A stretch of 64,000 nucleotides of DNA from Phycicoccus sp. Soil802 (GTDB taxonomy: Bacteria; Actinomycetota; Actinomycetes; Actinomycetales; Dermatophilaceae): contig NZ_LMSS01000003.1 of the NCBI RefSeq assembly GCF_001429605.1, positions 62,001 through 126,000 on the forward strand, in the 5' to 3' direction. A model generated the notes under the pieces. It searched no databases. It saw only the letters and a list, made by a program, of their open reading frames with translations, and was not told where the DNA came from. Both the position numbers and the translations under genes were made by a program. Positions 1,856 through 64,000 of the stretch are shown here, one piece after another (within the stretch, counting starts at the first letter, position 1; each line of letters begins with the position of its first letter).

Positions 1856-2006
1856 ACATCCATGATGCTACTGACGAGTAACGAATGCAAGGCGTCTGTG
1901 GGATTCCCCACCAAACGGACCACCCGGAGCAGGGCGATCGGGTATGCCGGGCCCGCACGGGAGGTGCCCGGGCGCCGGTTGGCGGCCACGCGGCATACTC
2001 ACGAGG

Positions 2007-2597
2007 GTGAGCGAGGAACCGCAGGAGCAGCCCGCGAGCCAGTCCAGTGGCGCCGTGCAGCGGGCCCGCGCCGACCTCGAGGCGGGTCGGGAGTGGAAGG
2101 CGCGCGAGCGGCTGGTCGGCCACCTTGCCGCGGAGTACGACGCGGAGGCGCTGGAGCTGCTCGGTGAGGTGAGCTACGCCATGCGCGACCTGCCGGCAGC
2201 GGGGGCGGCGTGGTTCGGCACGACCCGGCGCGGCAAGGACGTCGACGAGTCGGTCGAGGCGTGGCGCGAGCGGCACGGGGACCACTTCGCCCAGATGTGG
2301 AGCAGCCTGCCGCGGTCGGTGCGCGAGCTCGAGGGCAACAAGCGGGTGGATGCGCTGCGGCGCCGCGCCGAGCAGGTCGGCAGCTCCGGCGGGGCCGGGG
2401 GGGCGAGCAGCCCGGCACCGCCGGGACAGCCGAGGCCGGGCCAACCACGGCCGGGCCAGGCCCGCGCCTCCTCGGCGGACGACTCCGGTGAGGGCACCGA
2501 CGCGGCCACGGTCATCGCCCTCGCCCTGGGCGTGCTGTTCGTGGCGTGCGCCGTGATCGGGCTCGTCACCGTGCTCGGCTGGCTGGTGCCCGGATGA
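2007..2597 (+). CDS. DUF6584-type protein with C-terminal membrane helix
   Basis: I chose the GTG at 2007 (VSEEPQEQ), because the upstream in-frame extension is arginine/proline-rich and lies in the promoter region. Residues about 15-110 form a helical block (RARADLEAGREWKARERLVG...) that resembles the actinobacterial DUF6584 family from memory. A Pro/Gly/Ala-rich linker follows with PGQPRPGQ repeats, and the last 30 residues form one hydrophobic helix (ALALGVLFVACAVIGLVTVL). The protein is probably tail-anchored with its soluble domain in the cytoplasm. Its stop overlaps the start of the kinase gene by 4 nt (ATGA), so the two are co-translated. Function unknown. Confidence 0.75.
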   Translation: MSEEPQEQPASQSSGAVQRARADLEAGREWKARERLVGHLAAEYDAEALELLGEVSYAMRDLPAAGAAWFGTTRRGKDVDESVEAWRERHGDHFAQMWSSLPRSVRELEGNKRVDALRRRAEQVGSSGGAGGASSPAPPGQPRPGQPRPGQARASSADDSGEGTDAATVIALALGVLFVACAVIGLVTVLGWLVPG

Positions 2598-3292
2598 GCG
2601 GCGAGCCCTCGGTCAGCGTGGGAGGTCCGCCACTGGTGCGGCCGGCAGTGGTGGCGCAGGTGGCCGACTCCGTGCCCGTCGCGGTGGGGGAGGACTGCGT
2701 GCGGGTGGCGGTCGACGGGGTCGACGGGTCGGGCAAGACGGTCTTCGCCCACGAGCTCGCCGCAGAGCTGGCCGCGCGTGGCCGGTCGGTGGTGCGGGTC
2801 AGTGCCGACGACTGGCACCAGGTGCGCGAGCTCCGCTACGCCCGGGGCCGCACGTCGCCGGAAGGCTTCTGGCTCGACTCCTACGACTACCCGCGGCTGC
2901 GGGCCGAGGTGCTCGACCCGCTCGGGCCGGGTGGCTCGCGGGACTACCGGCCGCGGGGCCACGACCTCGAGACCGACGACGTGCTGACCGGTCCGACGAC
3001 CCGCGCACCGGCCGGTTCGGTGGTGCTGGTCGACGGGCTGTTCCTGCAGCGGGCCGAGCTGGAGGGCTGCTTCGAGCTCGCGATCTGGCTGGACGTGCCG
3101 TTCGAGGAGACCGCCGCGCGGATGGCGGAGCGCGACGGCACCCCGCCCGACCCCGAGGACCCGACCATGCAGCGCTACGTCGGGGCCCAGCGCACCTACT
3201 TCGAGCAGCGCTCCCCGTGGACGCGCGCCGACCTGGTCGTCGACAACACCGATCTGGCCGCTCCCTTCGTCGTCACCGGCCGGTTCGACTGA
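2594..3292 (+). CDS. Uridine kinase-like P-loop NTPase
   Basis: Cytosolic P-loop kinase of 232 residues. Walker A is GVDGSGKT at residues 42-49. The lid/substrate region has the DDWH, YDYPRL and TRAPAGSVVLVDGLFLQ motifs seen in uridine kinase/phosphoribulokinase-like proteins. The C-terminal YFEQRSPWTRADLVVDN is typical of actinobacterial 'uridine kinase family' proteins annotated without experiments. The start at 2594 overlaps the upstream stop (ATGA). The substrate could be a nucleoside or another small alcohol. The family is clear; the reaction is inferred. Confidence 0.8.
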   Translation: MSGEPSVSVGGPPLVRPAVVAQVADSVPVAVGEDCVRVAVDGVDGSGKTVFAHELAAELAARGRSVVRVSADDWHQVRELRYARGRTSPEGFWLDSYDYPRLRAEVLDPLGPGGSRDYRPRGHDLETDDVLTGPTTRAPAGSVVLVDGLFLQRAELEGCFELAIWLDVPFEETAARMAERDGTPPDPEDPTMQRYVGAQRTYFEQRSPWTRADLVVDNTDLAAPFVVTGRFD

Positions 3293-3395
3293 CCGGGGGC
3301 GGCTCACGCAGCCATGACTGACGCTGCCGTGACCGACGCTGTGCGCTCCGGCGTGGGTGCTTCGCCGTGTCGGTGCCCCGTGTCACCCTCGGGGC

Positions 3396-6648: not shown

Positions 6649-7605
6649 TCAGCCGTCGCTGAAGGGGCCCGAGAACGTCGTGACCACCGGGCGCGGTGCG
6701 GTGTCGACGGCCAGCCGGAACACGTCGGGGCGGTGGTAGTGGCCGACCGGGTCGAACATCCGCCGCGCCGACTTGACCTTCCCGAGGTCGAGCTCGGCGA
6801 CGAGCACCGCCTCCTCGTGGCGCGATGGTCCCGCGAGGACCTCGCCGTTCGGCCCGACGATGACGGTGTTGCCGGGCTCCACCCACTCGGGGTCGTCGGC
6901 GTCCACGCGCCACACCCGGTCGCGGTCGGGGAAGTCCTCCGGGATCTGGTCGACCCGCACACAGGGGTTCACGCCGATCACGAAGCAGCGGCCCTCGCGG
7001 GCGATGTGGCGCATCGTCGCGACCCAACCGTCACCTTGCGCGAGGGTCGGCGCGACCCAGACGTCGACGCCCTGCGAGTAGAGGTAGAACCGCGCGAGCG
7101 GCATGTAGTTCTCCCAGCAGATCAGCCCGCCGAGCCGCCCGAACGACGTCGGGTAGGTGTCGAGCGTCGAGCCGTCGCCCATGCCCCAGACGGTGCGCTC
7201 CGAGCCCGTCGGCATCAGCTTGCGGTGCTTGCCCATCAGTGAGCCGTCGGGAGCGAAGTAGAGCACCGTGTTGTAGATCGTGCTGCCGGTCGGCTCGCGC
7301 TCGTCGATCCCGATGACGAGGTAGACGCCGGCCTCCTTGGCCGCCGCGCCCATCCGCCGGGTCGCGTCGCTCGGCACGACCACCGCCTGGTCGGCCAGCA
7401 GCTCGAACCACTTCTCGTCGCCGTCCCAGATCGGCACCCCGTCGATCCAGATCGGCGTGCCCGGCACGAACGCCTCGGGGAACACGACCAGGTCCGCTGC
7501 ACGCACCTCCGGGCTGGCCAGCAGTGCCTCGACCTTGGCGAGCGTCGCCGCACGATCCATGAGGACGTATGCCGCCTGCACGGCTGCAACGGTCAGCGTG
7601 GCCAT
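6649..7605 (-). CDS. Nitrilase
   Basis: Carbon-nitrogen hydrolase of 318 residues. The catalytic triad is visible: Glu44 in FPEAFVPG, Lys129 in KHRKLMPT and Cys163 in GGLICWENYMPLARF. The CWEN form of the cysteine loop is typical of true nitrilases (nitrile to acid plus ammonia) rather than amidases. ATG 7605 (MATLTVAAVQ) is the family-typical beginning; an upstream in-frame extension is not. It ends 15 nt from the convergent PaiB-like gene. Substrate range cannot be predicted. Confidence 0.92.
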   Translation of the reverse strand: MATLTVAAVQAAYVLMDRAATLAKVEALLASPEVRAADLVVFPEAFVPGTPIWIDGVPIWDGDEKWFELLADQAVVVPSDATRRMGAAAKEAGVYLVIGIDEREPTGSTIYNTVLYFAPDGSLMGKHRKLMPTGSERTVWGMGDGSTLDTYPTSFGRLGGLICWENYMPLARFYLYSQGVDVWVAPTLAQGDGWVATMRHIAREGRCFVIGVNPCVRVDQIPEDFPDRDRVWRVDADDPEWVEPGNTVIVGPNGEVLAGPSRHEEAVLVAELDLGKVKSARRMFDPVGHYHRPDVFRLAVDTAPRPVVTTFSGPFSDG

Positions 7606-8339: not shown

Positions 8340-9713
8340 CTAGCCCATCAGCTCCGCGAGGCGAGCGATCCCGGGCGGACCGTACTTCGCGAGACGCTCG
8401 GTGGCGTCGTCGAGCGCCTGCGACGGGACGTAGCCCGGAGGGGTGCGCGCCGGGTTGAGGGCGACGCCGGTGGCCCACTCCTTGATGTCCGGCTCGGCGG
8501 TGTAGGCCGCGGCGTTGCGACTGCCGAAGACGATCATCTGCGCCCACTCCTGCAACGAGTTCCCGTAGACCGACGGGGAGCAGATCCGGTTCTTCTCGTC
8601 GTCGTCGTCGCGGGTCGCCTCGATGTAGCCGGTCACGGCCGCACCGAAGGAGGGGAAGCCGGCCCTGATCGCCTGGAGCGTGATGACGTCGGGACGCCAG
8701 ACGGGGACGCGCCCGGGGTACTTCAGGCCGTCGGCGGCGCAGTGCACGACGAGGGCGTCCTTGGTGACGGCCACCGACCCGTCCCCGAAGGTGAGCCGCC
8801 CGCGGTCGACGGTCTGGATGTGCCCGCGCCGCACGACGTTCTCGAGGGTGCGCAGCTGGTCGAGCTCCCAGGTGGCCAGCGTCGGTGTCTTGGCCATGGT
8901 CGGCGTGACCGTGCGGTCGATGCGCAGCACGACGTCGCGCTCCTCGAGCCTCAGCATCACCTCGTCGAGGGTCTCCGCGCCGACCGCCGCCTCCACGATG
9001 TCGGCGCTCGCGCCCAGGAAGATCGCGGGGTCGGGCTGGATGAGGGCGCGGTTGTACATCCACGGTTCGCGGGCCCGCACCCAGCAGATCGAGTCAGGGT
9101 CGACGCCCCGCGAGAGCAGCCAGATGCAGGCGTCGGTCGCGGTCTTGCCGGCCCCCACGACGACGTACTGGCTGGGCGCCTCGTCGAGCTGCGCCAGCTC
9201 GTTGACGGGGATGAGCCGCACGTCGTCGGCGACGCCGAACGGGGCTGCCTTCTCGGCGGGGATGCTCGGGGCCAGGTAGCGGGCGTCGACCACCCGGCAC
9301 CCGGGACCGACCTCGAACCGCTCGCCGGAGACGCGCGAGGTGAAGCTGCGGTCACCGGCATACTCACTGTTGGGGAAGAACTCGACGCGGCCGGTGTCGA
9401 CCAGGCGGTCGAGGACCTTGGCGTAGTAGGCGCAGATCTCCGGCTGGCTGGCGCGCTCCTGCAGTCCCTTCTCGGGCCCGCGCTGCTGCAGCTGGCCGCC
9501 GCCGAGCAGGGTCGACGCGACCCCGTAGAAGGCGGAGGACTGGTGCAGCCGCACGAACGGGTACGCCGCGAGCCAGTGGCCGCTGACGCCGTGCCGGCGG
9601 TCGACCAGCGCGACGCGGACGTCAGCGGCGTGGTCGACCAGCGCATCCGTGAAGGCCATGCCCATGGCGCCGGCGCCGACGACGAGGTAGTCGACTTCGA
9701 GCGTGCGCGTCAT
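8340..9713 (-). CDS. FAD/NAD(P)-binding oxidoreductase, monooxygenase-like
   Basis: A 457-residue flavoprotein. The N-terminal Rossmann motif is VVGAGAMGMAF (about 11-21) for FAD and a second, VVGAGKTATDACIWLL, lies in mid-protein for NAD(P)H. Between them GVSGHWLAAYPFVRLHQSS resembles flavin-containing monooxygenases. The classical Baeyer-Villiger fingerprint is not obvious. Stand-alone gene; nothing nearby reveals its substrate. Confidence 0.75.
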   Translation of the reverse strand: MTRTLEVDYLVVGAGAMGMAFTDALVDHAADVRVALVDRRHGVSGHWLAAYPFVRLHQSSAFYGVASTLLGGGQLQQRGPEKGLQERASQPEICAYYAKVLDRLVDTGRVEFFPNSEYAGDRSFTSRVSGERFEVGPGCRVVDARYLAPSIPAEKAAPFGVADDVRLIPVNELAQLDEAPSQYVVVGAGKTATDACIWLLSRGVDPDSICWVRAREPWMYNRALIQPDPAIFLGASADIVEAAVGAETLDEVMLRLEERDVVLRIDRTVTPTMAKTPTLATWELDQLRTLENVVRRGHIQTVDRGRLTFGDGSVAVTKDALVVHCAADGLKYPGRVPVWRPDVITLQAIRAGFPSFGAAVTGYIEATRDDDDEKNRICSPSVYGNSLQEWAQMIVFGSRNAAAYTAEPDIKEWATGVALNPARTPPGYVPSQALDDATERLAKYGPPGIARLAELMG

Positions 9714-11073: not shown

Positions 11074-11176
11074 CGCGGTCCAGCATCAGTCGAGGCCTTC
11101 GAAGAGGTCGGTCAGACGCAGACGAGGGTGCGGTTCCGCGGCATACGAGCAGTATCGGCTCGGGCCTCGTGGCGGC

Positions 11177-12558: not shown

Positions 12559-13454
12559 GCCGCCACCTCCTTGGCGTTGACTGCCTCCAGGAGCGCGGTC
12601 GGGTCGGCCGTCTGCCACTGGTCCCAGTAGGTCGGGAGGGTGGGTCGCAGGAGCTCGAGCGCCCGACGGCGCGTGTCCGCGTCGTACATCAGCGCCCAGA
12701 CGGTGCCCAGCAGCTCGATGGTCGGTCGCTGGGAGTCGAGGTACCGGAGCTCGAGGTACCCACCGCGCGGCCGGACCGGCGGAAAGAGCGTGTTCAGGTG
12801 GTAGCCGTCGTCCATCGCCTGCGGGATGGGGAGACGTGCGGCGGCGCCGGCGAACGCGGCATACGCCTCGATCGGATCGTGCACGTCGAGGTGGCGCCCG
12901 TCGTACCCGGTCCTGGCCGGGTCGATCCCCTGCCAGATGCGGGTGCGTGCGCGGTCGCCGCCGTAGGCCGCGACCAGTGCCGGGCCCGCGAGGTTGGCGA
13001 CCAGCCACTGCTCGTGGCCGGCCCGGCCGGGCAGCAGGTCGACGCACACCTGCAGGCTCGCGGTGAGCCGCATCATCCGTCGCCCGGCGTCGCCGTCGTG
13101 GTCGAACAGCTCCTGCATGGCGAGGTAGCGCGGCGTCTGGAGGGTGAGCGGCACGTCGTCGAGTGATCGCCACGGGTCGACGCCGGTGAGCGCGACTTCC
13201 GTTGCGGCTCCGACGGTCGCGAGGCACCAGTCGACCTCGCGGAGCAGTGCGGGGATGGACCGCTGCGGGGGCAGGCTCAGCTCCACCTGCCCGCCGGGCT
13301 CGAGGGTCGGGTGCCCGCGACGAGCCAGCTCACCATCGAGCTCCGGTATGCCGTCGCGCACGTGCATCTCGAGCTCGACGCCGATCATGCGGGGTCCCGT
13401 GGCGGGGCGGAACGCCCGCTGGACCGCTTCCCTCAGGTGCGCTGACTCAGTCAT
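12555..13454 (-). CDS. Glutamate-cysteine ligase, GCS2/EgtA-like, short form
   Basis: A 299-residue protein with the GCS2 ligase fold. MIGVELEMHV holds the acidic metal-binding residues, PGGQVELSLPPQ matches the glutamate/ATP site, and GYHLNTLFPPVRPRGGYLELRYLDSQ is the C-terminal arginine-bearing strand. EgtA proteins are usually over 400 residues, so this is compact. An AAGGAGAT ribosome-binding site precedes ATG 13454. First gene of the GCS2-GshB-MAPEG operon. Product most likely gamma-glutamylcysteine; a different gamma-glutamyl amide is possible. Confidence 0.82.
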   Translation of the reverse strand: MTESAHLREAVQRAFRPATGPRMIGVELEMHVRDGIPELDGELARRGHPTLEPGGQVELSLPPQRSIPALLREVDWCLATVGAATEVALTGVDPWRSLDDVPLTLQTPRYLAMQELFDHDGDAGRRMMRLTASLQVCVDLLPGRAGHEQWLVANLAGPALVAAYGGDRARTRIWQGIDPARTGYDGRHLDVHDPIEAYAAFAGAAARLPIPQAMDDGYHLNTLFPPVRPRGGYLELRYLDSQRPTIELLGTVWALMYDADTRRRALELLRPTLPTYWDQWQTADPTALLEAVNAKEVAA

Positions 13455-45320: not shown

Positions 45321-46391
45321 GTGGACTTCGCAGCGAGCGACCTGTCGCGGTTCGCCACGGACGTGCTGGTCGCGGAGGGAGTCCCCGAGGCCGACGCCGC
45401 CCTGCTGGCCGACTCGCTCGTCACGGCCGAGCTGTGGGGTCACGCCTCGCACGGCATGCTCCGGCTGCCCTGGTACGTCACCCGCCTGCGGTCCGGGGCG
45501 ATGGAGCGCACCACCGCAGCCGAGGTGGTCCGCGACGGTGGCGCGGTAGTGGTGCTCGAGGGGGGCCACGGCATCGGCCAGGTGCTGACCCAGCGGGCGG
45601 TCGAGCTCGGGATCGATCGCGCCCGCGTCCATGGCATCAGCGGGGTGGCCATCCGCAACTCCGGTCACTTCGGCACCGCCGCGTACTTCACCCGCCAGGC
45701 CGCCGAGGCGGGTTGCATCGCCCTTCTGATCACCAACGCCAGTCCTGCCATGGCCCCCTGGGGCGGCCAGGTCAAGGCGATCGGCACCAACCCCTGGTCC
45801 ATCGCCGCCCCGGCCGGCCGCCACGGCGTGGTCGTGATGGACCTCGCCAACACGGCCGTCGCCCGCGGCAAGGTCTACCTCGCGGCCGAGCGCGGCGAGG
45901 CGATCCCCGAGGGCTGGGCGGCCACTGCAGACGGGACCCCGACCACCGACCCCGCCGAGGCCATCGCCGGCCTGATCCTGCCGATGGCCGGACCCAAGGG
46001 CTACGTCATCTCGTTCATGATGGACGTCCTCGCGGGCGTGCTCACGGGCAGCTCCTTCGGTGACGGGGTCGCCGGTCCCTACGACCCCGACCGCCGCAGC
46101 GGGGCCGGCCACCTGCTCATCACCATCGACGTCTCCGCCGTGTCCGACGCGGCCGAGTTCTCGGCCCGCATCGAGGCCCTGGTCGACCAGACCCGCGGGG
46201 GTGAGCTCGCCGCCTGGGCGGACGAGATCCTCGTCCCCGGCGAGCTCGAGGACCGCACCCGAGCGCGGTTGGCCGCACACGGCATACCCCTGGCTGCCAC
46301 CACGCGGGACGCGCTGGCGACGCTCGGCCGGGAGGCCCGCGTCGCCCTGCCTGCCCCGCTCACCCCGACTGGACCGGAGGTCCTCGCATGA
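45321..46391 (+). CDS. Ldh2-family NAD(P)-dependent malate/lactate-type dehydrogenase
   Basis: A 356-residue oxidoreductase of the non-Rossmann Ldh2/MDH2 family. HGMLRLPWYVTRLRSGAME holds the family His; VAIRNSGHFGTAAYFTRQAA the catalytic His; APWGGQVKAIGTNPWSIAAP the cofactor loop; GPKGYVISFMMDVLAGVLTG the C-terminal signature. GTG 45321 has AGGAGG 5 nt upstream, which decides against upstream starts. First gene of a five-gene operon. Likely oxidises a 2-hydroxy acid (malate, lactate, ureidoglycolate, sulfolactate or a sugar acid). Confidence 0.9.
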   Translation: MDFAASDLSRFATDVLVAEGVPEADAALLADSLVTAELWGHASHGMLRLPWYVTRLRSGAMERTTAAEVVRDGGAVVVLEGGHGIGQVLTQRAVELGIDRARVHGISGVAIRNSGHFGTAAYFTRQAAEAGCIALLITNASPAMAPWGGQVKAIGTNPWSIAAPAGRHGVVVMDLANTAVARGKVYLAAERGEAIPEGWAATADGTPTTDPAEAIAGLILPMAGPKGYVISFMMDVLAGVLTGSSFGDGVAGPYDPDRRSGAGHLLITIDVSAVSDAAEFSARIEALVDQTRGGELAAWADEILVPGELEDRTRARLAAHGIPLAATTRDALATLGREARVALPAPLTPTGPEVLA

Positions 46392-48232: not shown

Positions 48233-49656
48233 GCGCCGACGTCACCACCACCGGCACGGTCTCGACCAGCACGGTCACGACCACCAACCCCGCCGACGGG
48301 ACCACGCTGGCGAGCTATCCGTCGATGGGTCCCGCCGAGGTCGAGCAGGCTGTCGCGCTCGGTGCCGACGCGGCCCGCGGCTGGGGCCGGGTCCCCGTCG
48401 CCGACCGCGCGGCGCTGCTCACCCGGTTCGCCGCCCACCTGCGCGCCGACGCCGAGCGGTATGCCGCCCTGGTCACCGCGGAGATGGGCAAGCCCTTGGC
48501 GCAGGCGCGGGGAGAGGTCGAGAAGTCGGCGGTCACCGCCGACTACTACGCTGCGAGGGCCGCGACGATCCTGGCTCCGCGAGAGGTCGAGATCGACTCT
48601 CCCGCAGGGGTTTCCGCTTTCGTCACGCCCGAGCCCCTGGGTCTCGTGCTGGCCGTGATGCCGTGGAACTTCCCGGTCTGGCAGGTGATGCGGTTCGCGA
48701 TCCCCACCCTGGCGGCCGGCAACGGTGTGCTGCTGAAGCACTCGCCCAACGTCACCGGGACGGCCTTGGCCCTGGCCGAGGCGTTCGAGCGGGTCGGCTT
48801 CCCCGCCCACCTCGTGACGGCCCTGGTCCTGGTCGAGGACGACGTGCCCGACACCGTCGGCGGGCTGATCGCCGACGACCGGGTCGCCGCCGTCACCCTC
48901 ACCGGCAGCAACCGGGCCGGTGAGATGGTCGGCGCTGCCGCAGGTCGCGCGTCCAAGCGGTCGGTCCTGGAGCTCGGCGGGTCCGACGCGTTCGTGGTCC
49001 TCTCCGACGCGGATGTCCCGGCCGCCGCGGCGGCTGCCGTGGGGGCCCGCTTCACGAACTCCGGCCAGAGCTGTGTCTGTGCCAAGCGGTTCGTCGTCGA
49101 GGCGCCCGTGGCTGAGGAGTTCACCAGGCTGTTCCTCGAGGGCGTCGAAGCCCTGTCCGTCGGCGACCCGACCGACCCGGCCACCAGCGTGGGACCGCTC
49201 GCGCGCGGCGACCTGCGCGCCGCCCTCCAGCGGCAGGTCGACCAGTCGGTCGCGGCCGGAGCCACGCTGGCGGCCGGCGGGCACAGCATCGACGGCCCCG
49301 GGTCCTTCTACGAGCCGACCGTCCTGCTCGACACCGGACCCGGCATGCCGGCCTTCGACGAGGAGACCTTCGGCCCGGTCGCGGCGATCGCCGTGGCCGC
49401 CGACGAGGACGAAGCCGTCCGGCTGGCCAACGCGACGCCGTACGGGCTGGGGCTCAGCGTCTGGAGCCGGTCCACCGAGCGGGCCCTGGGGGTCGCCCGC
49501 AGGGTCACCTCCGGAGCTGCCTTCGTCAACGCGGTCGTCGCCTCCGACCCGAGGGTGCCCTTCGGTGGCACGAAGCGCAGCGGCTACGGTCGCGAGCTCG
49601 CCGAGGCCGGCATCCTCGAGTTCACCAACCAGCGCACCTACTGGGTGTCCGCCTGA
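48229..49656 (+). CDS. NAD(P)-dependent aldehyde dehydrogenase
   Basis: A 475-residue aldehyde dehydrogenase of the succinate-semialdehyde type. MPWNFPVWQVMRFAIPTLAA is the cofactor/oxyanion segment, LELGGSDAFVVL the catalytic Glu, NSGQSCVCAKRFVV the catalytic Cys, and EETFGPVAAIAV the cofactor ribose Glu. GTG 48229 overlaps the cupin stop (GTGA). Last gene of the GntR-controlled operon; converts a pathway semialdehyde to an acid. Confidence 0.92.
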   Translation: MSADVTTTGTVSTSTVTTTNPADGTTLASYPSMGPAEVEQAVALGADAARGWGRVPVADRAALLTRFAAHLRADAERYAALVTAEMGKPLAQARGEVEKSAVTADYYAARAATILAPREVEIDSPAGVSAFVTPEPLGLVLAVMPWNFPVWQVMRFAIPTLAAGNGVLLKHSPNVTGTALALAEAFERVGFPAHLVTALVLVEDDVPDTVGGLIADDRVAAVTLTGSNRAGEMVGAAAGRASKRSVLELGGSDAFVVLSDADVPAAAAAAVGARFTNSGQSCVCAKRFVVEAPVAEEFTRLFLEGVEALSVGDPTDPATSVGPLARGDLRAALQRQVDQSVAAGATLAAGGHSIDGPGSFYEPTVLLDTGPGMPAFDEETFGPVAAIAVAADEDEAVRLANATPYGLGLSVWSRSTERALGVARRVTSGAAFVNAVVASDPRVPFGGTKRSGYGRELAEAGILEFTNQRTYWVSA

Positions 49657-51264: not shown

Positions 51265-51301
51265 GGTATGCCGCGTGCGCGGGGCGCGCTGGCGGCATAC
51301 C
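51265..51301. repeat. Inverted pair of the CGGCATAC element upstream of hutH
   Basis: GGTATGCCGC (51265-51274) and GCGGCATACC (51292-51301) are perfect 10-bp inverted arms around a 17-nt GC-rich loop. They lie 18 bp before the hutH start, in the gap to the divergent sigma-factor gene. Could be an operator, an RNA hairpin in the hutH leader, or one of the window-wide octamer elements. Confidence 0.65.
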
Positions 51302-51318: not shown

Positions 51319-52884
51319 ATGACCACCACTGCCACCTCCGTGCCGACGGTCACCGTCGGCACCGGCCCCATCTCGTTCGACGACGTCGTGGCGGTCGCCC
51401 GCCATGACGCCCGGGTCGAGATCTCTCCGGAGTCGCTCACCGAGGTGCGCCGCACCCGCGCCGTGATCGAGGCGCTGGCCGACGACACGGTCGCGCACTA
51501 CGGCGTCTCCACCGGGTTCGGCGCCCTGGCCACCCGGCACATCCCCGTCGAGCTGCGGGCCCAGCTCCAGCGGTCGCTGGTCCGCTCGCACGCGGCGGGC
51601 TCCGGCGCGGAGGTCGAGCGAGAGGTGGTGCGGGCCCTCATGCTGCTGCGCATCTCGACGCTCGCGACCGGCCGCACGGGCATCCGCGAGGAGACCCTGA
51701 CGACCTACGTCGGGATGCTCAACGCCGGCATCACCCCGGTGGTCCACGAGTACGGCTCGCTCGGCTGCTCGGGCGACCTCGCCCCGCTGTCGCACTGTGC
51801 GCTGGCGCTGATGGGCGAGGGCGTCGTCCGCGACGCCGAGGGTGTGCGGATGCCGACCAGCGAGGCGTTCGCCGCGGCCGGGATCACGCCGGTCGAGCTG
51901 CGCGAGAAGGAGGGCCTGGCCCTCATCAACGGCACCGACGGCATGCTCGGCATGCTCGTCCTCGCGATCACCGACCTGCGGATGCTGCTCAAGGTCGCCG
52001 ACGTCACCGCAGCGATGAGCGTCGAGGGCCAGCTCGGCACGGACGACGTGTTCGCCGCGGACCTGCACGCGCTCCGTCCCCAGCCCGGTCAGGCGCTGTC
52101 CGCCGCGAACCTGCGAAAGATCATGCAGGACAGCGGGATCCGTGACAGCCACCGTGACCCGGAGGCGTGCACGCGGGTCCAGGACGCCTACTCGCTGCGG
52201 TGCTCACCGCAGGTGGCGGGCGGGGTCCGCGACACCGTCGAGTATGCCGCGACCGTCGCCGGCTTCGAGCTCGCCTCCGCGGTCGACAACCCGGTGGTGA
52301 CGCCCGACGGCCGGGTCGAGTCCAACGGCAACTTCCACGGGGCGCCGGTCGCCTACGTGCTGGACTTCCTCGCGATCGTCGCAGCCGACCTGGCGTCGAT
52401 CTCCGAGCGTCGCACTGACCGCTTCCTCGACGTGTCGCGCAACCACGGGCTGCACGCGTTCCTCGCTGACGACCCCGGCGTCGACAGCGGCCACATGATC
52501 GCCCAGTACACCCAGGCCGCGATCGTCTCGGAGATGAAGCGGCTCGCCGCACCCGCGTCGGTCGACTCGATCCCCTCCAGCGCGATGCAGGAGGACCACG
52601 TGTCGATGGGGTGGTCGGCGGCGCGCAAGCTGCGCCGCTCGGTCGACGGGCTCACCCGGGTGCTGGCGGTCGAGCTGCTCACGGCGGCCCGCGCCCTCGA
52701 CCTGCGGGCTCCGCTCACCCCCGCGCCCGCCACGGCGGCGGTCGTGCAGGCACTGCGCGACGCCGGCGCCCCCGCACCGGGCACCGACCGCTTCCTCGCC
52801 CCGGAGATCGAGACCGCGGTCCAGCTCGTCGCCACCGGTGCGGCGGTCGCAGCAGCAGAGTCCGTCACCGGCCCCCTCAACTGA
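51319..52884 (+). CDS. hutH: Histidine ammonia-lyase
   Basis: A 521-residue histidase (L-histidine to urocanate plus ammonia). YGVSTGFGALATRHIPV holds the catalytic Tyr, and GSLGCSGDLAPLSHCALALM surrounds the MIO-forming triad. Here that triad is Cys150-Ser151-Gly152 rather than the usual Ala-Ser-Gly. SNGNFHGAPVAYVLDFLAI and SSAMQEDHVSMGW are further active-site motifs. ATG 51319 is the family-typical start; a longer upstream frame would cross the inverted repeat. Probably in an operon with hutU, 45 nt downstream. Confidence 0.95.
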   Translation: MTTTATSVPTVTVGTGPISFDDVVAVARHDARVEISPESLTEVRRTRAVIEALADDTVAHYGVSTGFGALATRHIPVELRAQLQRSLVRSHAAGSGAEVEREVVRALMLLRISTLATGRTGIREETLTTYVGMLNAGITPVVHEYGSLGCSGDLAPLSHCALALMGEGVVRDAEGVRMPTSEAFAAAGITPVELREKEGLALINGTDGMLGMLVLAITDLRMLLKVADVTAAMSVEGQLGTDDVFAADLHALRPQPGQALSAANLRKIMQDSGIRDSHRDPEACTRVQDAYSLRCSPQVAGGVRDTVEYAATVAGFELASAVDNPVVTPDGRVESNGNFHGAPVAYVLDFLAIVAADLASISERRTDRFLDVSRNHGLHAFLADDPGVDSGHMIAQYTQAAIVSEMKRLAAPASVDSIPSSAMQEDHVSMGWSAARKLRRSVDGLTRVLAVELLTAARALDLRAPLTPAPATAAVVQALRDAGAPAPGTDRFLAPEIETAVQLVATGAAVAAAESVTGPLN

Positions 52885-52929
52885 CACCACGGCATACCCG
52901 ACTCGTCGAAAGCACTCAAGGAGAACGAC

Positions 52930-56183: not shown

Positions 56184-56216
56184 GCGTATGCCGGGTGGTG
56201 ACCACCCGGCATACGC
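56184..56216. repeat. 33-bp near-perfect palindrome carrying two GTATGCCG elements
   Basis: A 16-nt arm (56184-56199, GCGTATGCCGGGTGGT) and its exact complement (56201-56216) around a single central G. Located 42 nt after the first phosphoesterase stop and 31 nt before the second start. As RNA it would be a stable hairpin, probably a terminator or attenuator; each arm contains the recurrent octamer. Confidence 0.75.
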
Positions 56217-58048: not shown

Positions 58049-59257
58049 GTGAGCTTCGAGTCGATGTGGTCTGACCTGCATCCGGTCGGACGCAGCGCCC
58101 AGAGCGGCGGCTACCGCCGGTTCGCGTGGACCCGCGAGGACCACGACCTGCGCGAGTGGTTCGCGGGGGAGTGCGCGGCGCGCGGGCTCGACCTCACCGA
58201 GGACCGGATGGGCAACCAGTGGGCGTGGTGGGGAGACCCTGACTCGGCCGCGGCCAAGGGGGACAAGGGCGTCGTCACGGGCTCCCACCTCGACAGCGTG
58301 CCGGACGGTGGCGCCTTCGACGGCCCGCTCGGGGTCGTCAGCGCCCTCGCGGCGGTGGACGCGTTGCAGGCCAACGGGTTCCAGCCCTCCAGGCCGATCG
58401 GTGTCGTCAACTTCGTCGACGAGGAAGGTGCCCGGTTCGGGGTCGCCTGCGCCGGCTCACGTGTCATCACCGGAGCCATGACCGCTCGCCGCGCGCGCAG
58501 CCTCACCGACGCCGACGGCACGACGATGGCCGACGCGCTCAAGGCGGCCGGGCGCGACCCGCACCAGATCGGTCGGGACGACGACGCGCTGCGGCGGATC
58601 GGCAGCTTCGTCGAGCTGCACGTCGAGCAGGGCCGTGGGCTCATCGACCTCGACCACCCCATCGCGGTCGGCAGCGACATCTGGCCGCACGGGCGGTGGC
58701 GGCTCGACTTCGCCGGCGAGGCCAACCACGCGGGCACGACCAGGCTCGAGGACCGGCACGACGCGATGCTCGGGTATGCCGCCGCGGTGCTCGCCGCCCG
58801 CGAGGCCGCCATCACCCACGGGTGCGTCGCCACCATCGGCAAGGTAGCCGTGACGCCCGGTGGCGTCAACGCGATCCCCAGCGCCGTGACCGGCTGGCTC
58901 GACGCCCGGGGCGCCAGCCCGCGCGCGGTCCGTCGCGCGGTCTCCGACATCACCGCGATGGTCGAGCAGTCGGGCGGCAAGATCACGCAGGAGTCCTGGA
59001 CCCCGTCCACGCCGTTCGACACCTCGCTGAGCGCGCGGCTGGGCACCCGGCTCGGCGGCATACCGGTGCTCGGGACGGGGGCCGGGCACGACGCCGGCAT
59101 CCTCGCGAACGCCGGCATCCCGACCGCCATGCTCTTCGTCCGCAACCCCACCGGCGTCTCGCACTCCCCGGAGGAGTTCGCCGAGACGTCCGACTGCCTC
59201 GAAGGGGTCGCGGCCCTCACCGCGGTGCTCGAGGACCTCGCCGGGGACGCAGCATGA
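58049..59257 (+). CDS. M20-family amidohydrolase in hut operon (allantoate amidohydrolase-like)
   Basis: A 402-residue metal-dependent amidohydrolase of the allantoate amidohydrolase/N-carbamoylase group. Metal ligands lie in VVTGSHLDSVPDGGAFDGPL, VNFVDEEGARFGVACAGSR, SFVELHVEQGRGLIDLDHPI and the terminal GAGHDAGIL/HSPEE. GTG 58049 starts it; its stop overlaps hutF (ATGA). Since hutF makes N-formyl-L-glutamate, this enzyme probably replaces HutG and releases glutamate plus formate. That role is inferred from position. Confidence 0.87.
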   Translation: MSFESMWSDLHPVGRSAQSGGYRRFAWTREDHDLREWFAGECAARGLDLTEDRMGNQWAWWGDPDSAAAKGDKGVVTGSHLDSVPDGGAFDGPLGVVSALAAVDALQANGFQPSRPIGVVNFVDEEGARFGVACAGSRVITGAMTARRARSLTDADGTTMADALKAAGRDPHQIGRDDDALRRIGSFVELHVEQGRGLIDLDHPIAVGSDIWPHGRWRLDFAGEANHAGTTRLEDRHDAMLGYAAAVLAAREAAITHGCVATIGKVAVTPGGVNAIPSAVTGWLDARGASPRAVRRAVSDITAMVEQSGGKITQESWTPSTPFDTSLSARLGTRLGGIPVLGTGAGHDAGILANAGIPTAMLFVRNPTGVSHSPEEFAETSDCLEGVAALTAVLEDLAGDAA

Positions 59258-60579
59258 CGACCTACTGGGCGGAGCACGCCTGGCTGCCCACGGGACTGGC
59301 GACCGATGTGCGGTTCGACGTCGTCGACGGCGTCTTCGCGGGGGTGCACCGCCGCGCGAGGGCGGAGGCCGGTGACGTCCGCCTGCACGGGGTGGTCCTG
59401 CCCGGGCTGGCCAACGCGCACAGCCACGCCTTCCACCGCGCGCTGCGCGGCCGCACCCACGGCGACGGCGGCAACTTCTGGACCTGGCGCCAGCAGATGT
59501 ATGCCGTCACGCGGCACCTCACGCCGGACACCTACCTCGCCCTCGCCCGGGCGGTCTTCGCCGAGATGGTGCTGTCCGGCACCACGGTTGTCGGGGAGTT
59601 CCACTACCTGCACCACGACCTGGCGGGGCGGCCCTACGCCGACCCCAACGCGATGGGCGAAGCAGTCATCGAGGCCGCCCGCGAGGCCGGCCTGCGGCTG
59701 ACGCTCCTCGACACCTGCTACCTCGCCGGGGGCCTGTCGGGCGACGGGCACCTGCCCCTCGACGACGTGCAGCGGCGCTTCACCGACGGGGACGTCGACC
59801 GGTGGGCGGCCCGCGTCGCCGCGCTCAGCCCCGACGCGACCACCCGCATCGGGGCGGCGGTCCACTCGGTGCGCGCCGTGCCCCGCGACGACCTGCGCGC
59901 GATGGCCGAGGTCACCCGCGGTCGGATCGTGCACGCCCACGTGAGCGAGCAGCCGGCTGAGAACCTCGCCACCCAGATGTTCTACGGCGCCACCCCCACC
60001 GAGCTGCTCGACGAGGCGGGGCTGCTGGGCGACCGGTTCAGCGCGGTCCATGCCACCCACCTGTCCGACCACGACATCCAGCTGCTCGGTGGGTCGTCGT
60101 CGACCGCGTGCTTCTGCCCCACGACCGAGCGCGACCTCGCGGACGGCATCGGCCCGGCCCGTGCGTTGGCGGAGGCCGGTGCCCGGCTGTCGCTCGGCTC
60201 CGACCAGCACGCCGTGATCGACCCGTTCGAGGAGATCCGGGGGCTCGAGATGCACGAGCGACTGGCGAGCAACGAGCGCGGCCGCTTCACCCCCGACGAG
60301 CTGATGACCGCCGCCTCGGTGGACGGCTACCGCAGCCTCGGGTGGCAGGACGCCGGGCTCATCGCCGACGGCGCCGCCGCCGACTTCGTCGTCGTGCGTA
60401 CCGACACGGTCAACACCGCGGGTGCCAAGGCGGGCCAGATCCTCTACAGCGCAACCCGATCCGATGTCGACACCGTCGTCGTCGGCGGGCAGGTGGTGGT
60501 CGAGTCCGGCCGCCACCGGCTCGGTGACGTGGCGGCCATGCTCGGCAAGGCGCTGTCCGACGTCAGGGACCACCAGTGA
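59254..60579 (+). CDS. hutF: Formimidoylglutamate deiminase
   Basis: A 441-residue amidohydrolase-superfamily enzyme. [20 protein letters not shown] carries the HxH metal site; [19 protein letters not shown] is a HutF hallmark; [27 protein letters not shown] and [19 protein letters not shown] supply the other ligands and the catalytic Asp. Converts N-formimidoylglutamate to N-formylglutamate and ammonia. ATG 59254 overlaps the M20 gene stop. Confidence 0.93.
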
Positions 60580-61739
60580 GCAGCACCGTCGTCACCGGCA
60601 TCGGCGAGCTCGTCACCTGCGACGGGACCACCCCCGACGGCCTGGGGCTGCGTCACGGCGCCGCCGTCGTCGTGGAGGACGACCGGATCGTCTGGGTCGG
60701 CTCGTCCTCGGAGGCGCCGGCGGCCGACCGCGCCGTCGACGTGGAGGGTCGCGCGGTGCTGCCCGGCTTCGTCGACTCCCACGCGCACCTGGTGTTCGCC
60801 GGCGACCGCGGTGACGAGTTCGCCGCCCGCATGGCCGGCACGCCCTACGACGGGGGCGGGATCGGGGTTTCCGTCGCGGCGACCCGCGACGCCTCGGACG
60901 ACGAGCTGCGGTCCCTGGTCGCGGGCCGGGTCGCGGAGATGCGCGCCCAGGGCACGACGACCGTCGAGATCAAGAGCGGCTACGGGCTGACCGTCCAGGA
61001 CGAGGCGCGGGCGCTGCGCATCGCCCGCGAGTTCACCCCCGAGACCACGTTCCTCGGCGCCCACGTGGTGCCCCGCGAGTACGCGGGTGACCGCGCGGCA
61101 TACCTGGAGCTGGTCACGGGGCCGATGCTGGAAGCAGCAGCTCCGCACGCGAGGTGGGTCGACGTCTTCTGCGAGCCGCACTCCGCGCACGCCTTCACCG
61201 AGGACGAGGCGCTGGCCGTCCTCGTCGCCGGACGGCACGCAGGGCTCGAGCTGCGCGTGCACGGCAACCAGCTCGGCCACGGACCCGGCGTGCGCCTCGC
61301 CGTCGAGCTGGGGGCGGCCAGCGTCGACCACTGCACCTACCTGTCCGACGCGGACGTCGAGGCACTCGCCGGAGCGGCGGACACGACGGTGGCGACCCTG
61401 CTGCCGGGGGTCGAGTTCTCGACCCGCTCGCCGTACCCGGACGCGGCGGCCCTGCTGCGGGCCGGGGTGTCGATCGCCCTCGCGACCGACTGCAACCCGG
61501 GCACCTGCTACTCGTCGTCGATGCCGTTCGTCATCGCGCTCGCCGTGCGCGAGATGGGCCTGACGCCGGGTCAGGCCGTGCTCGCGGCGACCGTCGGCTC
61601 GGCGAAGTCGTTGCGCCGCACCGACATCGGTCGCATCGAGGTCGGGGCGCGCGCTGACCTGACCGTGCTCGACGCGCCGTCCCACGTGCACCTGTCCTAC
61701 CGCGCCGGGGTCCCGATCGCCCGGGCGCTCGACCTCTAG
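60576..61739 (+). CDS. hutI: Imidazolonepropionase
   Basis: A 387-residue hydrolase, third step of histidine use. [20 protein letters not shown] (HxH), [56 protein letters not shown] and [15 protein letters not shown] are the imidazolonepropionase motifs. GTG 60576 overlaps the hutF stop (GTGA). Last gene of the second hut unit. Confidence 0.94.
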
Positions 61740-62134: not shown

Positions 62135-62221
62135 AACGACAGGGGAGCGCGCAAGCGCTGAGAGTGCGGGAGACCGCAGACCCTCACACCTGATCCGGTT
62201 CGCACCGGCGTAGGGAGTCGA
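62135..62221 (+). promoter_or_regulatory. TPP riboswitch (THI element)
   Basis: The conserved THI-box parts are in order. They are AGGGGAGC (62141-62148), the CTGAGAG core (62158-62164), a variable GC helix, ACCTGATCCGG (62188-62198), then the GTAGGGAG 3' strand pairing back to the start. It precedes ykoE by about 100 nt. Downstream, CACCTGT/ACAGGTG (62231-62261) forms a hairpin, and CTCTCCCG near 62265 is complementary to CGGGAGA at the ykoE ribosome-binding site. Control is probably at translation initiation: TPP bound, RBS masked. Confidence 0.93.
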
Positions 62222-62320
62222 GATCTCAGACACCTGTCGGGCGAGTGCGCCACCACAGGTGCTCCTCTCCCGGCAGCTGTCTCCCCGAGGTATCCACCGG
62301 ATCCCACGGGAGAAGAAAAC

Positions 62321-63007
62321 ATGAGCACCACCAACACCCCGGCCACCTCGGCCGGCAGCACCTCGTCCACCTCGCCCACCTCCACCCCGCCACGTCGCGG
62401 GAGCATCCGCGCCAGCGGGCAGCTCTGGGGTTGGCGGACCGTCGACCTCCTGACGGTCTCCTTCCTCGGCGCCGCGTTCGGCGTCGCCTACTGGGCCTGG
62501 GGTCTGGCCTACACCGCACCGGCCGCGGGGCTCGAGGCCCTCTTCCCGCCGCTGCAGGGCATCACGGGCGCGCCCTGGTTGATGGCCGGGGTCGTGGGCG
62601 GCCTGGTCATCCGCCGCCCGGGCTCCGCCCTGCTCTGCGAGGTCGTGGCGGCCCTCGTCTCGATGCTTCCCGGCACCAAGTGGGGTTTCACCACCCTCGT
62701 CTCGGGGATCTTGCAGGGTCTCGGCGCGGAGATCGCCTTCCTGCTCCTCGGGTATGCCGCGTTCGGCCTCGGTGCCGCACTCCTCGCCGGCGCCCTCTCC
62801 GCACCGCTGGAAGCTCTCTACGAGTGGCAGACGTGGTGGACGGACTGGGACCTGGGCTACAAGCTCGCCTACGCCGGCATCCTCACCGTCGCGGGCGCGA
62901 TCATCGCCGGTGGCCTCGGGTGGCTGCTGACGCGAGGGCTGGCCCGAGCTGGCGCCCTGGGCGCCTTCCCCGCAGGGCAGGAAGCCCGGGAGTCACACGC
63001 TGTCTGA
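62321..63007 (+). CDS. ykoE: ECF transporter S component, YkoE type
   Basis: A 228-residue membrane protein with about six helices: VDLLTVSFLGAAFGVAYWAW, GAPWLMAGVVGGLVIRRPGS, EVVAALVSMLPGTKWGFTTL and QGLGAEIAFLLLGYAAFGLG. These match the YkoE subunit of the HMP/thiamine-precursor ECF uptake system. The N-terminus is Ser/Thr/Pro-rich. RBS GGGAGAAG precedes ATG 62321. Riboswitch-controlled, so thiamine starvation induces it. Confidence 0.92.
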   Translation: MSTTNTPATSAGSTSSTSPTSTPPRRGSIRASGQLWGWRTVDLLTVSFLGAAFGVAYWAWGLAYTAPAAGLEALFPPLQGITGAPWLMAGVVGGLVIRRPGSALLCEVVAALVSMLPGTKWGFTTLVSGILQGLGAEIAFLLLGYAAFGLGAALLAGALSAPLEALYEWQTWWTDWDLGYKLAYAGILTVAGAIIAGGLGWLLTRGLARAGALGAFPAGQEARESHAV

Positions 63008-64000
63008 CCACCCCGGTCCCGGCGCCCCGTCGGGGCGCCGGGGTCAGCTCGAGGTCCGGGGACTGACCTGGCGGCCCTACGGCCGTCGCGACCCGGTCAT
63101 CCCCGGACTCGACCTCGACATCCCGCCCGGCCAACGGGTCCTGCTCGTCGGCCCCAGCGGTTCGGGCAAGTCCACGCTGCTGCGAGCGCTGGCGGGCGTG
63201 CTCGAGGTCGCCGACTCGGGTGAGCGCGGCGGCACCGTGCTGCTCGACGGCGCCGTCCCGGGGACCCGGGCCGGCGATGTCGGTCTCGTCCTCCAGGAGC
63301 CCGGTGCGGGCATCGTCTCGGCGACCGTCGGACGGGACGTGGCCTTCGGCCTCGAGAACATCGGCATGCCGCGGGCGGACATGCCCGCGCGCGTCGCCGC
63401 TGCGCTGGCCGCGGTCGACCTCACGATGCCGCAGGACACCCCGACGTTCGCACTGTCCGGGGGTGAGCAGCAACGGCTCGCCCTCGCGGGAGCGCTCGCC
63501 CTCGAGCCTGCCGTCCTGTTGCTCGACGAACCCACCGCGATGCTCGACCCGGTGAACGCAGAGTCGGTCCGGCGCACGGTCGACGAGGTCACCAGGTCCC
63601 GCGGGCTGACGACGGTCGTCGTCGAGCACCGGCTCGGCCCGTGGCTCGACCTCGTCGACTGGTTGGTCGTCCTCGACCCCACGGGCCGGGTCGTGGCGGA
63701 CGGCGAGCCTGCTTCGGTGCTCGCCCTGCACGGGGAATCCCTTGCTGCCCAGGGCATCTGGGTGCCCGGGTTCCCCGATCCGCAACCACGCGGCATACCT
63801 GCTGGGGTGTTCGAGCCGTCGTCGACGGGCGCCAACGTGCTGACCCTCGACGCGGCAGACGTCACCATCAGAAGGTCGGTGCGGGCGCTCGACGGCTCGA
63901 CCCGCACCACGGTCGCGGTGCAGGACCAGTGGTTCCAGGCCCGCGCCGGGCAGGTGCACGCGCTGGTGGGCCCCAGCGGTGCCGGCAAGTCGACCCTCCT
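63000..64000 (+). CDS. ykoD: ECF transporter duplicated ATPase, YkoD type (3' end outside window)
   Basis: The open frame runs to the window edge and encodes a fused double ATPase. The first domain has Walker [10 protein letters not shown], signature LSGGEQQRLALAGAL and Walker B VLLLDEPTAMLDP; the second Walker A (GPSGAGKST) begins at the very end. No ATG, GTG or TTG lies in frame between the stop at 62928-62930 and Walker A. CTG 63000 (LSDHPGPGAP) has GGGAG 7 nt upstream and overlaps the ykoE stop by 8 nt, so I take it as the start. Energises YkoE with a YkoC membrane subunit expected downstream. Confidence 0.9.
   Translation, partial: MSDHPGPGAPSGRRGQLEVRGLTWRPYGRRDPVIPGLDLDIPPGQRVLLVGPSGSGKSTLLRALAGVLEVADSGERGGTVLLDGAVPGTRAGDVGLVLQEPGAGIVSATVGRDVAFGLENIGMPRADMPARVAAALAAVDLTMPQDTPTFALSGGEQQRLALAGALALEPAVLLLDEPTAMLDPVNAESVRRTVDEVTRSRGLTTVVVEHRLGPWLDLVDWLVVLDPTGRVVADGEPASVLALHGESLAAQGIWVPGFPDPQPRGIPAGVFEPSSTGANVLTLDAADVTIRRSVRALDGSTRTTVAVQDQWFQARAGQVHALVGPSGAGKSTL
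63018..63042 (+). repeat. Perfect 12-bp stem at the ykoD 5' end
   Basis: CCCGGCGCCCCG (63018-63029) and CGGGGCGCCGGG (63031-63042) form a perfect stem around one T, beginning 18 nt after the CTG start. Such a stable early-coding hairpin could hold the ribosome on the start codon or limit ykoD translation. Confidence 0.55.

What the first reader, a model, noticed from the sequence alone, without database searches (positions are those of the whole stretch)
1942..63798. A recurrent octamer, CGGCATAC, is dispersed through genes and spacers
I located 32 copies by reading. GTATGCCG starts on the plus strand at 1942, 7567, 13346, 23271, 27832, 34527, 44217, 47103, 48459, 51266, 52242, 56186, 58774, 59499 and 62752. 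CGGCATAC starts at 1991, 9356, 11139, 12857, 23725, 24163, 27486, 34634, 37152, 43009, 46280, 51293, 52890, 56207, 59056, 61096 and 63791. At about 70% GC my hand estimate is 2-3 by chance. The usual wider form is CGCGGCATACC. In genes it often reads Ala-Tyr as GCA-TAC or Tyr-Ala as TAT-GCC, although GCA and TAT are minority codons here. Ten copies are intergenic, three times as inverted pairs. This distribution resembles DNA-uptake sequences or another genome-wide architectural or methylation motif, not a gene-specific operator.
Basis: partly seen in the sequence, partly recalled or inferred. Interest (0 to 1): 0.72.

Follow-up and report, generated by a model that had tools for sequence, protein, structure and literature searches.

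The report
Genome-wide DNA-uptake-like octamer in actinobacteria
One actinobacterial family carries thousands of copies of an eight-letter DNA tag that changes in small steps from genus to genus; it looks like the self-DNA label that some Gram-negative bacteria use when they take up free DNA, and we found no report of such a label in actinobacteria.

Summary
All 32 copies of CGGCATAC/GTATGCCG lie at the stated coordinates. The whole genome has 2,241 copies against 51 for the reversed control, about one per 1.9 kb. Synonymous-codon shuffling yields 9 coding copies where 182 are seen in a 464-kb sample. Single-mismatch neighbours stay near background, and there is no replication-strand bias. Aligned sites are kept between species at 74%, versus 40-46% for permuted octamers.

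The motif belongs to one family, Dermatophilaceae/Intrasporangiaceae: 108 of 186 genomes reach 100 copies/Mb, and by my reading of the table none of 386 genomes elsewhere in the class does. Some lineages carry variants instead of it or beside it: CGGCATCC, CGGCATTC, CGNCATAC, CCGCATAC, and probably CGCCGTAC and GCCGCTAC.

The best explanation is a DNA uptake sequence with dialects, as in Neisseriaceae, presumably working through ComEA/ComEC and a Tad pilus. Uptake preference and a receptor are not shown, and the competence genes do not distinguish motif-rich from motif-less relatives. I found no earlier report in the open-licence library.

The parts
1942..1949 (-). CGGCATAC copy; left arm of inverted intergenic pair
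1991..1998 (+). CGGCATAC copy; right arm of inverted pair
7567..7574 (-). CGGCATAC copy, in gene 6649-7605
9356..9363 (+). CGGCATAC copy, in gene 8340-9713
11139..11146 (+). CGGCATAC copy, intergenic
12857..12864 (+). CGGCATAC copy, in gene 12555-13388
13346..13353 (-). CGGCATAC copy, in gene 12555-13388
23271..23278 (-). CGGCATAC copy, in gene 23050-23337
23725..23732 (+). CGGCATAC copy, intergenic
24163..24170 (+). CGGCATAC copy, in gene 24006-27080
27486..27493 (+). CGGCATAC copy, in gene 27253-27798
27832..27839 (-). CGGCATAC copy, intergenic
34527..34534 (-). CGGCATAC copy, in gene 34359-34904
34634..34641 (+). CGGCATAC copy, in gene 34359-34904
37152..37159 (+). CGGCATAC copy, in gene 36538-37245
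43009..43016 (+). CGGCATAC copy, in gene 42308-43867
44217..44224 (-). CGGCATAC copy, in gene 43864-44541
46280..46287 (+). CGGCATAC copy, in gene 45321-46391
47103..47110 (-). CGGCATAC copy, in gene 46699-47805
48459..48466 (-). CGGCATAC copy, in gene 48229-49656
51266..51273 (-). CGGCATAC copy; left arm of inverted intergenic pair (27 bp start to start)
51293..51300 (+). CGGCATAC copy; right arm of inverted pair
52242..52249 (-). CGGCATAC copy, in gene 51319-52884
52890..52897 (+). CGGCATAC copy, intergenic
56186..56193 (-). CGGCATAC copy; left arm of a 29-bp inverted repeat 44 bp after a called gene end, predicted RNA MFE -35.5
56207..56214 (+). CGGCATAC copy; right arm of the same inverted repeat
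58774..58781 (-). CGGCATAC copy, in gene 58049-59257
59056..59063 (+). CGGCATAC copy, in gene 58049-59257
59499..59506 (-). CGGCATAC copy, in gene 59254-60579
61096..61103 (+). CGGCATAC copy, in gene 60576-61739
62752..62759 (-). CGGCATAC copy, in gene 62321-63007
63791..63798 (+). CGGCATAC copy, in gene 63198-63998

Best explanation
CGGCATAC is the DNA uptake sequence (self-DNA label) of a dialect system in the family Dermatophilaceae/Intrasporangiaceae. Inferred mechanism: a surface DNA receptor, probably a minor pilin of the Tad/Flp competence pilus or a partner of ComEA, binds the octamer on free double-stranded DNA. Labelled (kin) DNA is pulled in preferentially, passed through ComEA/ComEC and recombined. 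Because labelled alleles enter more often, the label accumulates and is kept across the chromosome, in either orientation and wherever protein sequence tolerates it. When the receptor's specificity drifts, the label changes genome-wide, giving genus-level dialects. Shown: the label, its genome-wide excess, its conservation between species, its family restriction, the dialects, and ComEA/ComEC/Tad genes in the genome. Inferred: receptor, preferential uptake, and natural competence itself.
For: Whole-genome count 2,241 vs 51 reversed control. Core 254 vs 6.7 expected in 464 kb; all 24 single-mismatch neighbours between 0 and about 3 times expectation. CDS 182 vs 9.0 +/- 2.7 under synonymous shuffling; intergenic 0.92 vs genic 0.47/kb. 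Of 23 close pairs (60 bp or less; 14.8 expected) in 784 kb of three genomes, 14 are in hairpin (-+) orientation, 7 +- and 2 direct. Co-oriented with replication in 195 of 411 sites, p = 0.32. Kept in 69 of 93 aligned sites vs 46% of 9,455 permuted octamers (G003) and 51 of 69 vs 40% of 7,508 (G004). A 30-kb low-GC island holds 4 sites vs 17.5 expected, P = 1.2e-4. 108 of 186 family genomes at 100/Mb or more; none of 386 class genomes outside the family, by reading the table. Dialects: CGGCATCC in g27, g17 and g64, where g64 has two CGGCATCC-dominant and two mixed species; CGWCATAC excess in g28 and g4; CGGCATTC in G022 and CCGCATAC in G030; probably CGCCGTAC in G140 and GCCGCTAC in G162, both standing out from 41 other samples and from three sets of outside loci. 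ComEA and ComEC, a comF-like gene and two tad clusters in the genome; tad genes are required for transformation in the actinobacterium Micrococcus luteus, and the same paper shows its comEA/EC locus mutants (PMC4322843, passages).
Against: No uptake experiment, and two searches for competence in this family returned no paper. ComEC (73 of 78 genomes) and the tad-2 ATPase (184 of 186 at E 1e-3 or better, 168 over the curated cut-off) are also present in motif-less genomes, so they do not predict the motif. Three motif-rich family genomes gave no ComEC match (G039, G042, G043; 340, 330 and 760 contigs) and the ComEC match of motif-rich G005 is in two pieces. Minor pilins of 17 tad-2 clusters gave no clean discriminator. 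G084 lacks the motif and any evident dialect but keeps the tad-2 ATPase. Depletion in acquired DNA rests on one island whose limits I drew after seeing the gap; the 10-kb gap in the window holds ordinary genes. In G004 the fifth letter of the octamer diverges as much as the flanks. Intergenic enrichment is absent in the small samples of G011, G013 (main form) and G022.
Confidence: 0.7

Rival explanations
1. Recombination hotspot of the Chi type: the octamer regulates a RecBCD/AddAB/AdnAB-like enzyme during break repair.
For: Short, asymmetric, frequent and conserved between species; Chi sequences also differ among taxa (recalled).
Against: No orientation bias with replication: 195 of 411 co-oriented. 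Intergenic enrichment and hairpin-oriented pairs are not expected. About 38-fold excess over dinucleotide expectation. One-letter dialect switches and mixed states inside one genus would need repeated re-tuning of an essential enzyme.
Confidence: 0.08
2. Chromosome-architecture site: binding site of a nucleoid-associated or chromosome-organising protein.
For: Even spread in both orientations over the sampled 400 kb, conserved.
Against: Single species lose it while their genus-mates keep it (G084, G140, G162) or shift to other octamers; one acquired island is depleted, which a housekeeping DNA-binding protein would not need. No candidate protein was sought.
Confidence: 0.1
3. Methylation or restriction-related motif (including a HIP1-like maintained site).
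For: HIP1 of cyanobacteria is another sharply over-represented octamer (recalled). A C5 methylase lies in a genomic island, with no known link to the motif.
Against: Restriction sites are usually avoided, not enriched (recalled). The octamer is not palindromic, unlike HIP1 (recalled). It drifts through several dialects.
Confidence: 0.07
4. By-product of codon usage, mutation bias or adapter contamination.
For: The octamer happens to lie inside the Illumina P7 primer (a primer quoted in the abstract of PMC4763429, listing), and Tyr-Ala/Ala-Tyr codon pairs host it.
Against: Synonymous shuffling yields 9 of 182 coding copies and intergenic density is higher. Flanks are diverse genomic DNA, and sites are conserved in orthologous alignments.
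Confidence: 0.02

Closest known systems
DNA uptake sequences (DUS) of Neisseriaceae with ComP receptor
   Same: Short asymmetric motif at thousands of copies per genome, several dialects differing by few bases with a conserved inner core, distribution following phylogeny, some family members without it (PMC3630211, passages: eight dialects, CTG core, n = 3,269 and 2,245 in two eikDUS genomes, five Neisseriaceae genomes without an obvious DUS).
   Different: Unrelated sequence (firm variants here share C..CAT.C); Gram-positive Actinomycetota; Tad/Flp pilus rather than the Neisseria type IV pilus; no receptor known; uptake preference not tested.
Uptake signal sequences (USS) of Pasteurellaceae
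   Same: Dense genome-wide short motif linked to competence; one orientation commoner inside genes (here 116 opposite vs 66 same; compare the abstract of PMC2346458, listing).
   Different: Different sequence and phylum; USS is a 9-bp core (abstract of PMC1626085, listing) and its receptor is only predicted (abstract of PMC12616744, listing).
HIP1 of cyanobacteria
   Same: Sharply over-represented octamer dispersed through genes and spacers (recalled).
   Different: HIP1 is a palindrome (recalled); CGGCATAC is not, and it has genus-level dialects.
Tad/Flp competence pilus of Micrococcus luteus
   Same: Two tad clusters plus ComEA/ComEC in the genome as in M. luteus (PMC4322843, passages).
   Different: The phrase 'uptake sequence' does not occur in that paper's main text. 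CGGCATAC is at background in the 30 sampled genomes of other families of the order.

Membership tests
DNA uptake sequence (DUS/USS) systems | Extreme genome-wide over-representation of a short motif, beyond codon usage | tested here: met
   2,241 vs 51; CDS 182 vs 9.0 in 464 kb
DNA uptake sequence (DUS/USS) systems | Spread over the chromosome in both orientations without replication-strand bias | tested here: met
   195 of 411 co-oriented around dnaA in samples of three genomes; 1,098 vs 1,143 on contig strands
DNA uptake sequence (DUS/USS) systems | Enriched between genes and found as close inverted pairs able to form hairpins | tested here: met
   Own genome 0.92 vs 0.47 per kb; 14 of 23 close pairs in hairpin orientation. 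Not seen in small samples of G011, G013 (main form) and G022
DNA uptake sequence (DUS/USS) systems | Taxonomically coherent, with dialects | tested here: met
   108 of 186 family genomes, none of 386 outside by reading; dialects; label clustered on a ComEC tree, 10 changes vs 17.1 shuffled
DNA uptake sequence (DUS/USS) systems | Depleted in recently acquired DNA | tested here: inconclusive
   One low-GC island, 4 vs 17.5 expected; a single case, limits drawn after seeing the gap
DNA uptake sequence (DUS/USS) systems | Host encodes a natural transformation apparatus | tested here: met
   ComEA, ComEC, comF-like gene, two tad clusters; also present in motif-less relatives
DNA uptake sequence (DUS/USS) systems | Competent cells prefer DNA carrying the motif | not testable with these tools
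   Needs a transformation assay
DNA uptake sequence (DUS/USS) systems | Sequence-specific extracellular receptor (ComP-like minor pilin) | tested here: inconclusive
   Small pilins of 17 tad-2 clusters inspected, no discriminator; other candidates not examined
Chi recombination sites | Orientation bias with replication | tested here: not met
   195 of 411, p = 0.32
HIP1-type palindromic repeats | Palindromic octamer | tested here: not met
   CGGCATAC differs from its reverse complement GTATGCCG
DNA methyltransferase/restriction motif | Modified base in the motif | not testable with these tools
   No long-read modification data held

The most novel reading that the evidence does not exclude
Gram-positive bacteria have evolved, independently of Neisseria and Haemophilus, a self-DNA labelling system: a family-wide set of at least five octamer dialects (seven with the two probable ones), read by a Tad-pilus-based competence machine, that sets who exchanges genes with whom among these actinobacteria, with dialect switches visible inside single genera.
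Probability: 0.6. Interest if true: 0.92.

Novelty: new variant of a known kind. Interest (0 to 1): 0.8.

Why it matters
Uptake sequences are known from two Gram-negative families (recalled; the abstract of PMC7811141, listing, names Pasteurellaceae and Neisseriaceae). A Gram-positive system with many dialects would show that sequence-biased uptake arises repeatedly and does not need an outer membrane or a Neisseria-type pilus. It would also give over a hundred sequenced genomes in which to study how a receptor and thousands of genomic sites change together. Carriers include Knoellia, Terrabacter, Intrasporangium, Ornithinimicrobium and Phycicoccus elongatus. It can be tested at once, by adding the matching octamer to donor DNA.

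Tried and rejected
Chance, dinucleotide and codon explanations: rejected. Chi/KOPS-like polar motif: no strand bias in 411 sites around dnaA in three genomes. Sequencing adapter: the octamer is within the Illumina P7 primer, but flanks and conservation exclude contamination. Competence gene presence as a predictor: ComEC in 73 of 78 relatives and tad-2 ATPase in 184 of 186 family genomes do not discriminate. Tad-2 small pilins: an 'RC-DA' cysteine motif in the TadE-like protein looked promising, but it also occurs in motif-less G033 and G046 and is missing in motif-rich G022. The strong (about 220-bit) TadA type of the tad-1 cluster is not the best match in motif-rich G013, G014, G022, G032, G037 and G044, so tad-1 is not required for the motif.

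Dialect candidates rejected or left open. CGNCGTAC in G033 looked like a dialect until I counted loci outside the family: nine Nocardioidaceae-like loci have about the same densities (0.31-0.50/kb) and similar coding excess, so I dropped it; CGGCGTAC in G079 falls with it. GGGCGTAC in G034 (12 coding copies vs 5.5) is weak. CGGCATCC in g2 (346-382/Mb in two species; G011 CDS 23 vs 6.8) is left open, because G067, outside the family, reaches 1,548 copies in 3.8 Mb. The control (reversed CSWCATAC) is inflated by the motif itself, so I did not use it.

Paper searches for the motif, or for uptake sequences or competence in these bacteria, showed nothing on point. Limits: one search matched 2,606 papers, of which 10 were listed (adapter and primer text in those whose abstract start showed the letters), and one search matched 201, of which 15 were listed; the library holds open-licence PMC papers only.


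Full report
Observation. The window is G000:C3:62001-126000 of a 4.29-Mb genome. There the octamer occurs 1,098 + 1,143 times, and the same letters read backwards 26 + 25 times.

Anatomy. In 400 kb around dnaA plus the window, the octamer occurs 254 times against 6.7 expected from dinucleotides, and each of the 24 single-mismatch neighbours lies between 0 and about 3 times its expectation; the highest are CGGCCTAC (40 vs 13.2) and CGGCATCC (89 vs 40.9). Flank preferences are weak: C at -5 and -2, G at -1, C at +1. My own gene calls (a simple codon-model caller) put 182 copies in genes and 72 between genes, 0.47 and 0.92 per kb. Permuting synonymous codons leaves 9.0 +/- 2.7 coding copies (30 rounds, maximum 14). 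In genes, 108 copies read TAT-GCC and 45 read GCA-TAC.

Pairs and strands. In 784 kb from three genomes, 23 neighbouring pairs lie within 60 bp (14.8 expected). Fourteen are GTATGCCG...CGGCATAC, 7 the opposite inversion and 2 direct. Several are 29-bp inverted repeats near gene ends with strong predicted hairpins, as at window 56186. Around the origin, 195 of 411 sites are co-oriented with replication (p = 0.32), so this is not a polar motif.

Conservation. Between this genome and two species of the same genus (86% and 84% identical in alignable DNA), 69 of 93 and 51 of 69 aligned sites are unchanged, against 46% of 9,455 and 40% of 7,508 octamers of the same letters in other orders. Divergence falls over the octamer and rises beside it, except that in G004 the fifth letter diverges like the flanks. 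The motif is therefore maintained.

Acquired DNA. One low-GC stretch (C2:264-294 kb, 63% GC) with a C5 methylase and a kinase-helicase gene has 4 sites against 17.5 expected (P = 1.2e-4); its limits were drawn after the gap was seen. It is a single case, and the 10-kb gap in the window (13.3-23.3 kb) holds ordinary genes.

Distribution. In the family (186 genomes, 53 genera), density is two-humped: 108 genomes have 100/Mb or more, up to 1,356/Mb. In 394 genomes drawn over the class, 8 belong to the family; by reading the table, none of the other 386 reaches 100/Mb. The highest is G244 (386 copies in 7.5 Mb), and the largest well-counted excess over control is G504 (170 vs 27). Thirty genomes of 19 sister families in the order have at most 167 copies (G066, control 184). 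Named relatives from a ComEC scan identify the family as Dermatophilaceae/Intrasporangiaceae (the label is recalled). Carriers include Knoellia remsis (11 in 14.7 kb), Phycicoccus elongatus Lp2 (22 in 22.2 kb), Terrabacter Root85 (12), Humibacillus (15 and 13), Intrasporangium oryzae (10), Ornithinimicrobium tianjinense (7) and Arsenicicoccus (6). Phycicoccus jejuensis, two Janibacter, Intrasporangium flavum and Dermacoccus abyssi have none in their stretch. Of the 55 loci L118, L120-L124 and L126-L174, nearly all from other families, one Streptomyces stretch has 5 and the others 0-2. The window's own genus is not named in these data.

Dialects, firm. CGGCATCC: G036 987/Mb, G026 and G089 763 and 698/Mb, G100 and G101 1,211 and 1,248/Mb; G102 and G103, same genus as the last two, carry 686-700/Mb of it together with 380-396/Mb of CGGCATAC; coding counts exceed synonymous shuffles in G036 (30 vs 4.8) and G026 (21 vs 3.2). 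Third position relaxed (CGNCATAC, beside CGGCATAC): g28 and g4. CGGCATTC beside CGGCATAC in G022 (9 coding copies vs 0.7; a 15-kb sample) and CCGCATAC in G030 (14 vs 1.4; 60 kb).

Dialects, probable. G140, whose genus-mate G141 has 722/Mb of CGGCATAC, carries CGCCGTAC instead: 104 in 140 kb, coding 79 vs 22.4, intergenic 1.41/kb; its 0.74/kb exceeds 41 other samples (at most 0.35) and three sets of outside loci (0.18-0.31), though other TAC-containing octamers are also raised there. G162, whose 30 genus-mates carry CGGCATAC, has GCCGCTAC (0.31/kb; coding 38 vs 7-8; at most 0.15/kb in 41 other samples and 0.06 outside). G084 shows none. CGNCGTAC in G033 was dropped, because Nocardioidaceae-like loci match it.

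Tree. On a 50-row ComEC tree the CGGCATAC label needs 10 changes against 17.1 for shuffled labels (1 of 500 shuffles as low), so it is inherited but repeatedly gained or lost (16 of 44 inner branches open, bootstrap not settled).

Machinery. This genome has comEA and comEC side by side and a comF-like gene (below its curated cut-off). It also has two tad clusters: one of the helicase/secretion type (TIGR03819 ATPase, TIGR03817 helicase), and one recognised from a PF00437 match and by reading. Flp-, TadE- and TadF-like genes beside the TIGR03819 ATPase were identified by reading and found by tblastn in most of the loci of 17 relatives. Micrococcus luteus needs its two tad clusters for transformation (PMC4322843, passages read). 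These genes do not tell motif-rich from motif-less relatives, nor do the small tad-2 pilins.

Reading. A short asymmetric motif at thousands of copies, kept by selection or by drive, indifferent to strand, favoured between genes, confined to one family and drifting through one-letter dialects is the known signature of DNA uptake sequences. The Neisseriaceae study found eight dialects with an invariant CTG core, consistent with phylogeny (PMC3630211, passages).

Limits. Gene calls are approximate. Dialect calls outside the whole-genome counts rest on 15-160 kb samples. Classes use thresholds I chose (100, 300, 400 and 600 per Mb).

Noticed in passing
L021:933-980 (G000:C2:100933); L185 from about 9825 (G004): A parS-like sequence GTTCCACGTGAAAC (parS consensus recalled) lies in the loop between two inverted CGGCATAC copies, on the same side of dnaA, about 16 and 11 kb from it in the two species.
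   Followed up: no
G000:C2:264203-294000 (L029, L030): Low-GC island with C5 cytosine methylase, kinase-helicase fusion and several proteins without Pfam match; looks like a defence-type island.
   Followed up: partly
L120, L122, L123, L126, L129, L130, L140, L173, L174; also G033, G079, G142 samples: CGNCGTAC octamers are about 3-5 times commoner in coding sequence than synonymous shuffling predicts in Nocardioidaceae-like loci (for example CGACGTAC 60 vs 13.1) and are also raised in some motif-less family members; codon context or another motif.
   Followed up: partly
G046 and G047 samples (L058, L059, L092, L209): A different octamer, CCCCCTTC/CCCCTTCG, is enriched (CCCCTTCG 48 vs 7.0 in 60 kb of G046; CCCCCTTC 10 vs 1.2 in 20 kb of G047) in genomes without CGGCATAC.
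   Followed up: no
G016 sample (L040, L041): ACCGCCTCC and ACCGGCTCC enriched (16 vs 1.2 and 11 vs 1.3); cause unknown; this genome's tad-2 ATPase match is weak (E 1.2e-52).
   Followed up: no
own genome, 464-kb sample: CGGCCTAC is about threefold over dinucleotide expectation (40 vs 13.2) and is among the commonest states at orthologous sites where CGGCATAC is not kept (3 and 4 cases); possibly a weakly accepted variant.
   Followed up: partly
G067 (family f19, outside the family): CGGCATCC occurs 1,548 times vs 184 reversed control in 3.8 Mb, the highest value for that octamer among the 30 non-family genomes.
   Followed up: no
window 13346-23271: Ten-kilobase stretch without any copy; genes match TetR, PAP2, oxidoreductase, TPR, MFS, SnoaL, methyltransferase, PadR and YecM.
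   Followed up: yes
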